The position numbers and the translations under genes were made by a program. From NCBI RefSeq assembly GCF_000213975.1, contig NZ_GL892076.1, forward strand, positions 1,377,337 to 1,441,336: a stretch of 64,000 nucleotides of DNA, given 5' to 3'. Shown piece after piece: positions 12,998-16,326 of the stretch. Every line of letters starts with the position of its first letter. Position 1 is the stretch's first letter. The stretch comes from Centipeda periodontii DSM 2778 (lineage in GTDB: Bacteria; Bacillota; Negativicutes; Selenomonadales; Selenomonadaceae). The notes below the pieces were generated by a model that saw only the letters and a list, made by a program, of their open reading frames with translations, was not told the origin of the DNA and ran no database searches.

Positions 12998-13072
12998 GCG
13001 CTCGTAGTCCAGTGGATAGGACGTTAGCCTCCGGAGCTGAAAGCGTGGGTTCGACTCCCGCCGAGCGCACCA
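12998..13072 (+). tRNA. tRNA-Arg (anticodon CCG)
   Basis: The 7-bp acceptor stem GCGCTCG/CGAGCGC pairs perfectly, followed by discriminator A and an encoded CCA. The D stem is GTCC/GGAC, the anticodon loop is CTCCGGA with anticodon CCG (reads CGG), and the T arm is GCGGG-type with the GTTCGA loop sequence. A short transcript is bounded by its own promoter and terminator. Confidence 0.96.
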
Positions 13073-13252: not shown

Positions 13253-15928
13253 ATGGCGCGAAAAGAGATGCAGGCAGCGGTACGTCCGGTGCTTATGCGC
13301 AGCTTACATTTGAAAAAGGATGCATTTCGGCAGTTCTTTTACGAGAGCTCGTTTTGCTTTGGACAGCAGATAGGAAGGGATATTGCTGCGCTCAAGGATG
13401 AGACCGCTTCCATTGTCAATAAGAAGTATATGTTCTCGCTCGCTACGGAGAAGAGCGGTGCACAGAGCTTTTTGAAGTGGATCGCAGACGAGTTCAATGC
13501 GGAGGATGTTTCACATGAGCAGGAGGAGCGGCTGCGCCGTTTCGTTGCGGAGTATCCGAAGATTCGCTCCTACATCCGCATTGAGGAGGATCAGCTGCTC
13601 TTCGATCATGAACGCTTTGCCGAGGATGTTGTTGCCGGGCGTTTCAAAGAGACGATCTTTGGCATGACCTTTGACATCCAGGGCGTGATCGAGACGGCGA
13701 TCAACACCGGTTCCGTGGCGCTGGACTTCTCCATTGAACCGTTTAAAAAGCAGCTTCTCTATGCCGATCACGTACGTGCAAACATTCAGCCCTATGCAGA
13801 GCGCCTCCTGACGGATATGAGCTTGGGGCACTGGGATCTCTATGAGGAGCTGACGGAGGAGGGGCGTGAGGACAGCGTGTGCCTGCGACTGCCGTCGACG
13901 GATTTCCTCGTTGCCCGCCCACCGCAGCTGGACGTTATCATGAACGGCACCTGCGCCATCGACTTCGGTACGCGCAGCACCGTTGTTGTCTGCCGTGATC
14001 GTGAGGCGCGTCTTCTGCGCATCGGCAAGGGAGACTACGAGAACGAACCGACGATTCAGGACTACGAGAACCCGACGGCGATCGAGCTGATCGACATCGA
14101 AAAGTTCAAGCAACTTTACCGCGCGCGAGAGGGGCGCCCCTATACAGAGTGGGCGCAGGTCACTGCGTCCCATCAGGCGGCGGATGCGATCTTCGAGCGG
14201 CAGTCCACGGAGGGCATTGCTGTCTATTACTCCGTGTTCAGCGAGCTCAAGCGCTGGACGCGCGACACGGCGAACTCGCCGATTCTAAAAGACCGACGCG
14301 GCTACATTCAGGAGGTCAAGCCGTACGCGGAGACGCAGCCCCTCGATGCAGGCGGCTTCGATCCGATCGAGATCTACGCGTACTATCTCGGCCTCTACAT
14401 CAACAACATGCACCGCAACATCTACCTCGACTACATCCTGTCCTTCCCCGTGGGCTATGAGAAGAACTTGCGTGAACACATCCGCATGAGCTTTGAACGC
14501 GGTCTCAGAAAGACGCTGCCGAAGGCACTGCTCGATGATCCGGAGATGATGCGACGGTTCCGTGTGTACGATGGTGCGAACGAGCCGGCAGCGTATGCAA
14601 TCAGCGCACTTGAGGCGTATGGGCTCGAGCCGAAGCGCGTGGGCGAGGAGGTCGCCTATGGCGTATTTGACTTTGGCGGCGGCACGACAGACTTTGACTT
14701 CGGAGTGGAATATGTGCCGGAGAACGGGCGGCGGAAGTTTGTCATCGAGCAGTTCGGCTTTGGCAGCGACATGTATCTCGGCGGCGAAAACATCCTTGAG
14801 CTGCTTGCCTATGATGTGTTCAAGGACAATCTTGCGGAGATGCGCCTGCACAAGATCACCTTTGCCCTGCCGCCCGAGAGCGAGACGTTCGCGGGTGCGG
14901 AGGCTCTTGTGCGTGAGACACGCGATGCGGCATCGCATCTGAACAATAAGATCCTTGCCGAGCGCCTGCGTCCCTTCTGGGAGCGCCGTGAGGGCTATGA
15001 GGAGTTCGCGGCGGGAGACAGCTTCGATACAAAGATCACCTTGTTCTCCTCGGAAAAGACAGGAAATGCAGGCAACCGTGCAGAAATCCGTCTGCACATC
15101 GACGTGCGAAAGCTCGAACGTACGCTTGAGGATCGCATTCGGCGCGGCGTCGAGAACTTCTTCCAGGCGATGGCTGCGGCGTTCAAGGGACGCAATGTGC
15201 GTCAGGTGCACATCTTCCTTGCCGGCAACTCGTGCAAGGCGCCCATGGTACGCAAGCTCTTCGATGAGTATATCGCGCGTCAGATCAATACCATGCACCA
15301 GATGACTCCCGAACGTCCCACGGACAAGCCCGATGTTGCCGGAGGGAAGAAGCCGGAGAATCCAACAAAGGGATTGACCATGCAGCAGCGCAAGGATGCG
15401 CCTTTCGTCCTCTATCTCCCGCTCGGTATGGAGAATGAAGAGAAGGAGCGAAAAATTCTCCATGACGGATTCGATCGCCTGCGTACGGGCAAGACGGGCG
15501 TGGCGTTTGGACTCCTGCGCTGCCGCAAGGGCGGGAAGGATGTCAAGATCATCAACAAGAACGTGGATGAGCATGATGAGCTCCTCTTCCCGTACTTCCT
15601 CGGCAGTCTGAACGAGCGTGGCTGCTTTAAGGTGGACATCGACGCGCACGTCGACTATGGCGTGTGGACGTACTTCACCTATGCGGATGAGGATGAGTTT
15701 GAGCTCTACTATACACAGGAGCCGCGTGCACTGAAGGGGCATATGAAGGCGGCTGAGGTGCGTATGGTGCGCTGTATGATCGATGCAGATGACGTGAATG
15801 ATGATGATGAGGTCGGTGTCTATATCCGCAAGCGCTCGCCGAATACGATTGAATACACCGTCGCTTCGGAAAAGAGCCTTGAGGAAAAGAGCTGCAAAGG
15901 GACGATCTACACCGTTCGCCTCGGCTGA
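13253..15928 (+). CDS. Hsp70/actin-fold ATPase-like protein with a novel N-terminal region
   Basis: An 891-residue protein. Residues about 1-230 match no family I recognise. From about 232 the Hsp70/actin ATPase signatures appear: phosphate-1 loop AIDFGTRSTVVV, phosphate-2 loop VFDFGGGTTDFDFG near 472, and an adenosine-type motif IFLAGNSCKAPMVRKL near 655. DnaK itself begins with phosphate-1, so this protein carries an N-terminal extension. It lacks a recognisable DnaK substrate-binding domain; the C-terminal approximately 200 residues are acidic and unassigned. It is followed 24 bases later by a ComFB-domain gene. A chaperone-like or cytoskeletal ATPase role is inference; the specific function is unknown. 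Confidence 0.75.
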   Translation: MARKEMQAAVRPVLMRSLHLKKDAFRQFFYESSFCFGQQIGRDIAALKDETASIVNKKYMFSLATEKSGAQSFLKWIADEFNAEDVSHEQEERLRRFVAEYPKIRSYIRIEEDQLLFDHERFAEDVVAGRFKETIFGMTFDIQGVIETAINTGSVALDFSIEPFKKQLLYADHVRANIQPYAERLLTDMSLGHWDLYEELTEEGREDSVCLRLPSTDFLVARPPQLDVIMNGTCAIDFGTRSTVVVCRDREARLLRIGKGDYENEPTIQDYENPTAIELIDIEKFKQLYRAREGRPYTEWAQVTASHQAADAIFERQSTEGIAVYYSVFSELKRWTRDTANSPILKDRRGYIQEVKPYAETQPLDAGGFDPIEIYAYYLGLYINNMHRNIYLDYILSFPVGYEKNLREHIRMSFERGLRKTLPKALLDDPEMMRRFRVYDGANEPAAYAISALEAYGLEPKRVGEEVAYGVFDFGGGTTDFDFGVEYVPENGRRKFVIEQFGFGSDMYLGGENILELLAYDVFKDNLAEMRLHKITFALPPESETFAGAEALVRETRDAASHLNNKILAERLRPFWERREGYEEFAAGDSFDTKITLFSSEKTGNAGNRAEIRLHIDVRKLERTLEDRIRRGVENFFQAMAAAFKGRNVRQVHIFLAGNSCKAPMVRKLFDEYIARQINTMHQMTPERPTDKPDVAGGKKPENPTKGLTMQQRKDAPFVLYLPLGMENEEKERKILHDGFDRLRTGKTGVAFGLLRCRKGGKDVKIINKNVDEHDELLFPYFLGSLNERGCFKVDIDAHVDYGVWTYFTYADEDEFELYYTQEPRALKGHMKAAEVRMVRCMIDADDVNDDDEVGVYIRKRSPNTIEYTVASEKSLEEKSCKGTIYTVRLG

Positions 15929-15952
15929 CCGTCATCGGAAAGGAGCGCTGTG

Positions 15953-16246
15953 ATGCCATACCTGCCGTTTAAGAACTACATGGAGGATGCTGTAGAACGA
16001 ATGCTGGATCGGCTGGCTCCGCAGTATCCCGAGATCTGTATGTGCGATCGTTGTCGTACGGATATGATGATGATTGCGCTGAACAATTTGCCGCCGCGCT
16101 ACGTTTCCACGCATAAGGGCGCCGTGCTCCTCCGCGTTGAGGGCATGGAGATCCAATATGAGGTGGAGGTGATGACCGAAACCATGCGCGCGATGCAGAT
16201 TGTCGGCAGTCAGCCGCATCATGGCCGCAACGAAGAGGGACTGTAA
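15953..16246 (+). CDS. ComFB-domain protein
   Basis: A 97-residue protein resembling late competence protein ComFB. An N-terminal NYMEDAVERMLDRL helix is followed by the signature CMCDRCRTDMMMIALNNLPPRYVST, whose CxCxxC can bind zinc. The ATG at 15953 lies 7 bases after AGGAG; a GTG immediately before it is less likely. ComFB-type domains have been reported to bind cyclic dinucleotides. It forms an apparent two-gene operon with the Hsp70-like ATPase, and no other competence genes are near. A terminator follows at 16263. Confidence 0.8.
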   Translation: MPYLPFKNYMEDAVERMLDRLAPQYPEICMCDRCRTDMMMIALNNLPPRYVSTHKGAVLLRVEGMEIQYEVEVMTETMRAMQIVGSQPHHGRNEEGL

Positions 16247-16262
16247 CTCTTGTGTCAACGAA

Positions 16263-16304
16263 AACACCCGCAGATAAAAAAATTTGTCTAGCGGGTGTTT
16301 TTTT
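16263..16304 (+). terminator. Terminator after the ComFB gene
   Basis: A 9-bp stem AACACCCGC/GCGGGTGTT (16263-16271 with 16291-16299) closed by an inner AGA/TCT pairing, then a run of T. Confidence 0.85.
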
Positions 16305-16326
16305 GTTACAATAAAGAAGAAATCAA

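What the first reader, a model, noticed from the sequence alone, without database searches (positions are those of the whole stretch)
13253..16246. Hsp70-like ATPase with a new N-terminal domain paired with a ComFB protein
The 891-residue protein has clear Hsp70/actin phosphate loops only after about 230 residues of unrecognised sequence, and lacks a recognisable substrate-binding domain. Its only operon partner is a ComFB-domain protein, a family linked to cyclic-dinucleotide binding and competence, with no other competence genes nearby. A two-gene ATPase plus second-messenger receptor module is an attractive hypothesis.
Basis: partly seen in the sequence, partly recalled or inferred. Interest (0 to 1): 0.55.

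Follow-up and report, generated by a model that had tools for sequence, protein, structure and literature searches.

The report
Stand-alone Hsp70-type ATPase beside ComFB
In mouth-dwelling Selenomonas bacteria an unusual Hsp70-type molecular switch, related to genes of mobile-looking cassettes where it sits with a GrpE-like helper, has become a permanent gene sharing an operon with the small signalling protein ComFB; whether the two work together is untested.

Summary
The 891-aa protein (13253-15928) carries the Hsp70 nucleotide-binding motifs from residue 236 on; its first 231 residues match no known domain. ComFB (best start 15953, end 16246) follows after 24 nt and ends in a strong terminator. 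The pair adjoins in 14 of 14 genomes of the genus.

Outside the genus the two were not neighbours in anything read: 47 distinct stretches with the ATPase held no ComFB, and 22 with ComFB no ATPase. The N-terminal region is shared with relatives. The ATPase family is patchy and recurs in at least three multi-gene settings. In two, a coiled-coil protein with a GrpE-like C-terminus usually lies directly upstream, with a HerA-type ATPase or a VgrG/toxin set further on. The window gene nests in the clade of the HerA-linked copies but lacks those partners: a stand-alone, strongly conserved derivative. ComFB is a class-wide gene; in the 7 loci read outside the family it adjoins a pilM-like gene.

Best reading: a domesticated, probably active Hsp70-type ATPase co-transcribed with a relocated ComFB. 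Functional coupling is plausible but unproven.

The parts
13253..15928 (+). Hsp70-type ATPase (HSP70L), 891 aa, stand-alone member of the cassette family
13253..13945 (+). N-terminal region (residues 1-231), no known domain; residues 106-231 clearly shared with relatives, 1-105 more weakly
   Evidence: AF2 model of residues 1-233 only pLDDT 51.1
13946..15292 (+). Hsp70 nucleotide-binding domain (residues about 232-680): phosphate-1 (236-240), K333, E444, phosphate-2 (472-481), adenosine motif (654-662)
15293..15469 (+). Fast-evolving linker (residues 681-739)
   Evidence: mean dN 0.365 against 0.026 in the NBD
15470..15925 (+). Conserved C-terminal region (residues 740-891), in the place of an Hsp70 substrate-binding domain but not recognisable as one
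15953..16246 (+). ComFB protein (97 aa from the ATG), CxCxxC motif and C-terminal histidines as in the published zinc site
16259..16305 (+). Intrinsic terminator after ComFB (ends approximate)
   Evidence: -25.1 kcal/mol, z -8.0; not listed by the scan, which allows only short loops
12998..13072 (+). tRNA-Arg (ccg) directly upstream, found in 9 of 9 named sister loci

Best explanation
HSP70L is a domesticated, stand-alone member of a family of large Hsp70-type ATPases that mostly sit in multi-gene, patchily scattered cassettes beside a GrpE-like protein, probably a dedicated nucleotide exchange factor. In the ancestor of the oral Selenomonas group one copy related to the GrpE-like/HSP70L/HerA cassettes lost its partner genes, became fixed beside tRNA-Arg, and came to be co-transcribed with ComFB, which in this family no longer sits beside pilM. 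Shown: the family relation, the motif set, the absence of the partners at the locus, fixation in the genus, purifying selection and the operon layout. Inferred: that the partners were lost rather than never present; that the ATPase is active and cycles like Hsp70; that the family-specific N- and C-terminal regions bind clients or partners and move with nucleotide state; that exchange is now spontaneous or served by the cell's general GrpE; and that ComFB, of a family that binds c-di-AMP or c-di-GMP, regulates the same process. This last step is the weakest (about 0.35 on its own).
For: Profile match to DnaK; equivalents of DnaK D8, T11, K70, E171, D194, T199 and D201 identical in 27 of 27 rows (mapping). 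Tree: oral genes inside a 19-row clade (98/97) in which 9 of 15 non-oral rows have a HerA gene within 9 kb, and an 11-row subclade (100/100). GrpE-like gene directly upstream in 24 of 37 copies; its C-terminal profile finds 30 of 30 GrpE at E 3 or better and 0 of 30 antisense decoys; hhalign Prob 94.9 against at most 9.75 in 100 column shuffles. No such gene (E 1), HerA or F7 gene (E 1e-3) in the window or in 22 loci of 13 sister genomes; a whole-genome search of the own genome found, beside weak coiled-coil matches, only its ordinary GrpE. Pair adjacent in 14 of 14 genus genomes; gaps 23-29 nt, dN/dS 0.044 and 0.097. Diadenylate cyclase in 14 of 14 genus genomes.
Against: No structure: full-length AF2 failed (pLDDT 35.6), the N-terminal one is weak (51.1). 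GrpE-likeness covers about 48 columns, stays below Pfam's cut-off (18.3 against 25.8 bits), and the reverse search from GrpE is weak (best F1 E 0.0056). 13 of 37 copies fail the upstream rule. Stand-alone could be ancestral: roots are by midpoint and six of the 15 non-oral rows of the clade show no HerA in the stretch read. Genus-wide adjacency partly reflects general synteny (hyp232, tRNA-Arg and mostly cysE are kept too). HerA and F7 were not sought in whole sister genomes. Nothing shows contact between HSP70L and ComFB.
Confidence: 0.7

Rival explanations
1. First reader's module (a special case of the best reading): HSP70L and ComFB are a dedicated two-protein device in which ComFB senses a cyclic dinucleotide and gates the ATPase.
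For: Pair in 14 of 14 genus genomes, kept in the 2 of 9 loci without cysE-cysS nearby; ComFB binds c-di-AMP and c-di-GMP in Synechocystis (PMC12313861, part 1 of 3 of the text); diadenylate cyclase in 14 of 14 genomes; PilZ-DnaK proteins act with the c-di-GMP-binding CdbS in Myxococcus (PMC10313047, abstract and two passages).
Against: No linkage seen outside the genus; each protein exists widely without the other; the ATPase has a different recurrent neighbour elsewhere; deletion of comFB in B. subtilis did not change transformation (PMC4381287, passages).
Confidence: 0.3
2. Fortuitous operon (also compatible with the best reading's ancestry): ComFB was moved next to a stand-alone ATPase and only shares its promoter.
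For: Of 15 ComFB loci read in other genomes of the family none has a PilM-like gene or HSP70L beside it; pairing is confined to one genus; the flanks are also conserved.
Against: The pair keeps 23-29 nt spacing across species at near-saturated synonymous distance (mean dS about 1.3), and stays together where the flanks changed: an insertion between hyp232 and tRNA-Arg in L049, no cysE-cysS nearby in L050 and L051.
Confidence: 0.35
3. HSP70L stands in for PilM: the genus keeps T2SSE-type pilus genes, no canonical PilM was seen, and ComFB, beside pilM elsewhere, here adjoins another actin-superfold ATPase.
For: ComFB beside a PilM-like gene in 7 of 7 loci read outside the family, of 17 such matches (Pfam PilM in four; the profile was built from those four). 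The genus's PilM_2 matches above the cut-off lie in an 824-876-aa frame, FtsA-like by my reading of one translation. T2SSE, T2SSE and T2SSF genes adjoin in the own genome.
Against: HSP70L is a cassette Hsp70 relative, not a PilM; the pil genes are about 0.9 Mb away; G010 has a sub-threshold PilM_2 match in a 352-aa frame, so a divergent PilM may exist; ComFB has also left pilM in other genomes of the family without detected HSP70L.
Confidence: 0.06
4. Degenerate remnant: HSP70L is a decaying leftover of a lost cassette.
For: Partners are missing, and 235 residues precede IDFGT against 249-427 in the 34 other non-class-C copies that are not the short stand-alone type.
Against: Intact in 14 of 14 genomes, dN/dS about 0.04, catalytic residues kept.
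Confidence: 0.03

Closest known systems
DnaK/Hsp70 chaperones with GrpE
   Same: Nucleotide-binding domain motifs, catalytic residues and, in the cassettes, a GrpE-like neighbour
   Different: 231 residues before the NBD, no recognisable substrate-binding domain, sub-threshold Pfam score, no linked GrpE-like gene in the window
GAP1-N2 GTPase conflict systems with HSP70 and GrpE (PMC7159879, passages seen)
   Same: Conflict-type neighbourhoods coding for HSP70 and GrpE, some with a second HSP70 lacking the peptide-binding domain
   Different: Those centre on GAP1-N2 GTPases; here Pfam names HerA, WYL, VgrG and toxin-like neighbours. GAP1-N2 was not sought specifically
CoCoNuT Type III CnuD Hsp70-like proteins (PMC11090510, passages and section 10 seen)
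   Same: Hsp70-like ATPase in a defence-type operon with coiled coils, HEPN and HerA/FtsK-type ATPases
   Different: CnuD has an SBD, HEAT repeats, degenerate Walker A-like motifs and an McrB GTPase partner; HSP70L keeps the catalytic residues tested
Myxococcus PilZ-DnaK chaperones CsdK1 and CsdK2 with CdbS (PMC10313047, abstract and two passages seen)
   Same: Second-messenger-binding protein functionally tied to Hsp70-type proteins
   Different: PilZ domains, not ComFB; fused to DnaK; NBD-linker-SBD layout
ComFB/CdgR family
   Same: Pfam ComFB well above cut-off; CxCxxC plus C-terminal His as in the B. subtilis zinc site (PMC4381287, passages)
   Different: Below the NCBIfam Bacillus-type equivalog cut-off (39.4 against 120 bits); located beside an Hsp70-type gene

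Membership tests
Hsp70 | Phosphate-1, phosphate-2 and adenosine motifs in NBD order | tested here: met
Hsp70 | Catalytic residues (DnaK D8, K70, E171, D194, T199, D201) | tested here: met
   27 of 27 rows, mapped; the DnaK residue numbers are recalled
Hsp70 | Pfam HSP70 gathering score | tested here: not met
   12.6 against 20.6 bits; so called Hsp70-type, not filed as an Hsp70 family member
Hsp70 | Substrate-binding domain with lid | tested here: inconclusive
   No sequence match of the C-terminus; structure model failed
Hsp70 | ATP hydrolysis and client binding | not testable with these tools
   needs purified protein
ComFB | Pfam ComFB gathering score | tested here: met
   78.2 against 25 bits
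ComFB | Zinc-site residues (C25, C27, C30 and a C-terminal Cys or His in B. subtilis) | tested here: met
   C29, C31, C34 and His 89/90 in the window protein (site)
ComFB | Cyclic-dinucleotide binding | not testable with these tools
   binding residues not compared
GrpE (for the cassette neighbour F1) | C-terminal GrpE domain after a long coiled coil | tested here: met
   hhalign Prob 94.9, 100 shuffles at most 9.75; 30 of 30 GrpE at E 3 or better, 27 of them above the first unexplained ORF; 0 of 30 antisense; reverse search weak
GrpE (for the cassette neighbour F1) | Pfam GrpE gathering score | tested here: not met
   18.3 against 25.8 bits for the first member; called GrpE-like only
Known anti-phage system (PADLOC 2023) | HSP70L matched by a PADLOC model | tested here: not met
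   no hit for the window, G026, G020, G007 and two Acinetobacter copies
CoCoNuT | McrB-type NxD GTPase in the operon | not tested
   no dedicated search was made

The most novel reading that the evidence does not exclude
The GrpE-like/HSP70L/HerA and GrpE-like/HSP70L/VgrG-toxin cassettes are undescribed conflict systems built on a dedicated Hsp70-GrpE pair, and oral Selenomonas have domesticated the Hsp70 and wired it to c-di-AMP through ComFB. ComFB would then be a second-messenger partner of actin/Hsp70-fold ATPases in general: PilM in pilus operons, HSP70L here.
Probability: 0.15. Interest if true: 0.8.

Novelty: new variant of a known kind. Interest (0 to 1): 0.5.

Why it matters
It links a fixed gene of oral Selenomonas to a family of mobile-looking cassettes with their own Hsp70 and GrpE-like pair, for which my searches found no description, and shows two stand-alone lineages within that family. 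If ComFB does act on it, a cyclic dinucleotide would control an Hsp70-type switch, and the ComFB-PilM adjacency seen elsewhere would suggest what ComFB does in pilus operons.

Tried and rejected
AF2 on the full protein with 10 close sequences failed (pLDDT 35.6); on residues 1-233 it stayed weak (51.1). No fold search was run on either. A pattern-based scan of viral contigs gave 46 stretches and no relative; phage records gave none. PHROGs had no match for 8 proteins. F7, F2 and F9 families had no convincing PDB match. The PDB search with the GrpE-like family was swamped by coiled coils, and in Pfam many coiled-coil families match more members than GrpE does, so only the C-terminal region was compared afterwards. 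hyp232 as a lasting neighbour: one other stand-alone copy (L137) has a homologue upstream, but in six of seven further loci read hyp232 lies beside other genes of the window or none, so dropped. SrfB/SrfC (recalled lead): no SrfB match in Pfam, literature listing unhelpful. A first GrpE comparison used wrong-strand translations for 17 of 30 loci and is discarded; one search replaces it. One row of alignment A3 (L032) is a wrong-strand translation and was not used. Eleven family-F0 ORFs under 750 aa (fragments and ordinary DnaK-like proteins) were dropped before the counts and the trees. The second tree leaves out nine of the 47 rows of the first: six class C rows and three long-branch rows of G458. 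I called the unnamed genus g12 'rumen' in my notes; no call shows its habitat, so the word is not used here.
Full report
Observation. The window holds an 891-aa ORF at 13253-15928 and a ComFB ORF ending at 16246, same strand. The ribosome-binding site before ComFB favours the ATG at 15953, leaving a 24-nt gap; in 13 sister genomes the gap to the aligned ComFB start is 23-29 nt. A strong terminator follows ComFB (-25.1 kcal/mol, z -8.0, none of 200 shuffles as good); the scan, which allows only short loops, does not list it. Upstream lies tRNA-Arg(ccg) at 12998-13072, also in 9 of 9 named sister loci. Those nine, from a scan that reaches close relatives only, are all Selenomonas, oral species by recall.

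The ATPase. Alone, the protein gives only a sub-threshold Pfam HSP70 match (12.6 bits against 20.6) and weak PDB matches. A profile of 27 relatives matches 14 PDB sequences at E 0.001 or better, all DnaK/Hsp70, best 4.7e-6, in collinear pieces. hhalign against two DnaK sequences, the genome's own first, gives Prob 94.9, E 4.3e-8; beyond about residue 680 that alignment is not trustworthy. Equivalents of DnaK D8, T11, K70, E171, D194, T199 and D201 are identical in 27 of 27 rows. Between the window and 13 sister genomes mean dN/dS is 0.044 overall, 0.046 and 0.035 in the two parts of the N-terminal region, 0.023 in the NBD, 0.041 in the C-terminal region, 0.229 in the linker 681-739, and 0.097 in ComFB (dS is near saturation, so these are rough). 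So it is probably an active ATPase with conserved extra regions on both sides. The 'new N-terminal domain' is real in that nothing known matches it, but relatives share it, clearly from about residue 106 and more weakly before.

Distribution. A single-sequence search finds it in all 14 genus genomes and 2 of 46 others (G020, G026), with a distant second copy in G007. A profile finds 71 of 189 genomes of the family, 57 of them outside the genus, four of these only weakly (E above 1e-4, possibly ordinary Hsp70s), and 10 of 398 drawn from the phylum, four weakly. Two plasmids, of Acinetobacter and Helicobacter, carry relatives. No phage record did. The patchiness and the plasmids suggest mobility; this is inference.

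Cassettes. I read 39 non-window loci and clustered their ORFs. Three settings recur. A: coiled-coil gene (F1), HSP70L, then genes that in L058 are DUF4280 with a marginal AHH match, Imm11, F2 (about 730 aa, unnamed), a sub-threshold Hcp match, a VgrG-type gene, F9 and F8, sometimes with an ordinary DnaK-like gene (Pfam HSP70 in L120); 11 loci by the Hcp/VgrG rule. B: F1, one or two HSP70L, a HerA/DUF87 ATPase (F6) and, in 8 of 9 loci, F7; F6 in 9 loci. C: six distant copies; in G007 with OmpA, radical SAM and AAA genes. A WYL regulator lies near in G026, G020 and the Acinetobacter plasmid. The plasmid cassette also has HerA, a GrpE-like gene, two HSP70L, a gene annotated HEPN (Pfam sub-threshold) and a dynamin gene. 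In G458 a LeoA-like gene lies beside F1 and HSP70L (PADLOC E 1.4e-92). HSP70L itself has no PADLOC model. A defence or conflict role is an inference.

The usual neighbour is GrpE-like. F1 is a long coiled coil with a conserved C-terminus. That 125-aa region, as a profile, finds 30 of 30 GrpE proteins of relatives at E 3 or better (27 above the first ORF that is neither GrpE nor F1-like) and 0 of 30 antisense decoys; hhalign gives Prob 94.9 over 48 columns against at most 9.75 in 100 column shuffles. The reverse search, from GrpE to F1, is weak (best E 0.0056). Pfam GrpE hits the same place at 18.3 bits, below its 25.8; 8 of 17 members match at E 1 or better, fewer than some coiled-coil families. 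By an automatic rule F1 lies directly upstream of 24 of 37 HSP70L copies of 750 aa or more; the window copy and six class C copies, left out of the 37, have none. Of the 13 misses, four are second tandem copies, two overlap an F1 gene by 65 nt (just outside the rule), three are short stand-alone copies, and four others fail (one with a weak hit, one with an F1-like ORF further off). The window and 22 loci of 13 sister genomes (nine genomes counted twice, some loci only 1.5 kb either side) show no F1 (E 1), F6 or F7 (E 1e-3). The own genome as a whole yields five weak F1 matches, two of them in its ordinary GrpE. HerA and F7 were not sought in whole genomes.

Ancestry. In the 47-row tree and a careful 38-row tree the oral genes nest in a 19-row clade (98/97) and an 11-row subclade (100/100, inner order open). 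Nine of the 15 non-oral rows of the 19 have HerA within 9 kb; six show none in the stretch read. Of the six nearest rows, all of unnamed genus g12, five have F1 directly upstream. A separate stand-alone set in g12 (793-806 aa) nests in clade A. Residues before IDFGT: 235 in the window, 93-104 in that set, 249-427 in the 34 other non-class-C copies. Loss of partners in the oral line is the simplest reading; roots are by midpoint.

ComFB. It is a genuine family member with the published zinc-motif spacing. It occurs in 45 of 60 genomes searched, 31 of 46 outside the genus, with 32 matches there. I read 22 of the 32: none has HSP70L. Of the 22, 7 of 7 outside the family (of 17 such matches) have a PilM-like gene directly beside it on the same strand, and 0 of 15 inside the family do. 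The PilM profile was built from four of the seven, which Pfam confirms as PilM; the other three rest on the profile. In the genus ComFB adjoins HSP70L in 14 of 14 genomes. Of 56 HSP70L loci outside the pair, 48 are distinct stretches (one, a class C copy, in genus genome G007); none holds ComFB. The genus has a diadenylate cyclase and T2SSE genes in 14 of 14 genomes. PilM_2 matches above the cut-off lie in an 824-876-aa frame, FtsA-like by my reading; G010 adds a sub-threshold match in a 352-aa frame.

Mechanism. I take HSP70L to be an ATP-driven conformational switch whose N- and C-terminal regions hold partners. ComFB of Synechocystis binds c-di-AMP and c-di-GMP (PMC12313861, part 1 of 3 read), and Myxococcus has PilZ-DnaK proteins working with a c-di-GMP-binding protein (PMC10313047, abstract), so gating by ComFB is credible. 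Against it, the linkage is confined to one genus, and B. subtilis comFB is not needed for transformation (PMC4381287, passages). The listings of eight literature searches showed no description of this cassette or pairing; the closest are GAP1-N2 systems with HSP70 and GrpE (PMC7159879, passages) and CoCoNuT CnuD (PMC11090510, passages and section 10). The BREX survey PMC12839542 does not mention hsp70.

Verdict.

Noticed in passing
window 3419(-), 13195, 16337, 21920, 56230(-): Dispersed repeat with a common 20-base core: 69 matches (up to 2 mismatches) in the own genome, none for the reversed control; one copy lies on each side of the HSP70L-ComFB pair.
   Followed up: partly
L058, L120, L126, L127, L129, L131, L135, L141, L142, L143, L150: Cassette A: GrpE-like and HSP70L genes with, by Pfam in L058, DUF4280, Imm11, VgrG-type and sub-threshold Hcp genes plus three unnamed families; looks like a delivery or conflict cluster.
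   Followed up: partly
L117 7106-22973 (Acinetobacter piscicola plasmid NZ_CP048660): WYL, HerA, GrpE-like, two HSP70L, HEPN-annotated, dynamin and integrase genes in one run.
   Followed up: partly
L136, L137, L138: A second stand-alone HSP70L set in unnamed genus g12, nested in the cassette A clade, with most of the N-terminal region missing.
   Followed up: partly
L059 1243-14997 (G007): Distant class C HSP70L with OmpA, radical SAM, AAA and coiled-coil genes, in a genome of the window's genus.
   Followed up: no
L067, L069, L070, L071, L072, L073, L076: ComFB directly beside a PilM-like gene in the 7 loci read outside the family; may bear on the role of ComFB in pilus operons.
   Followed up: partly
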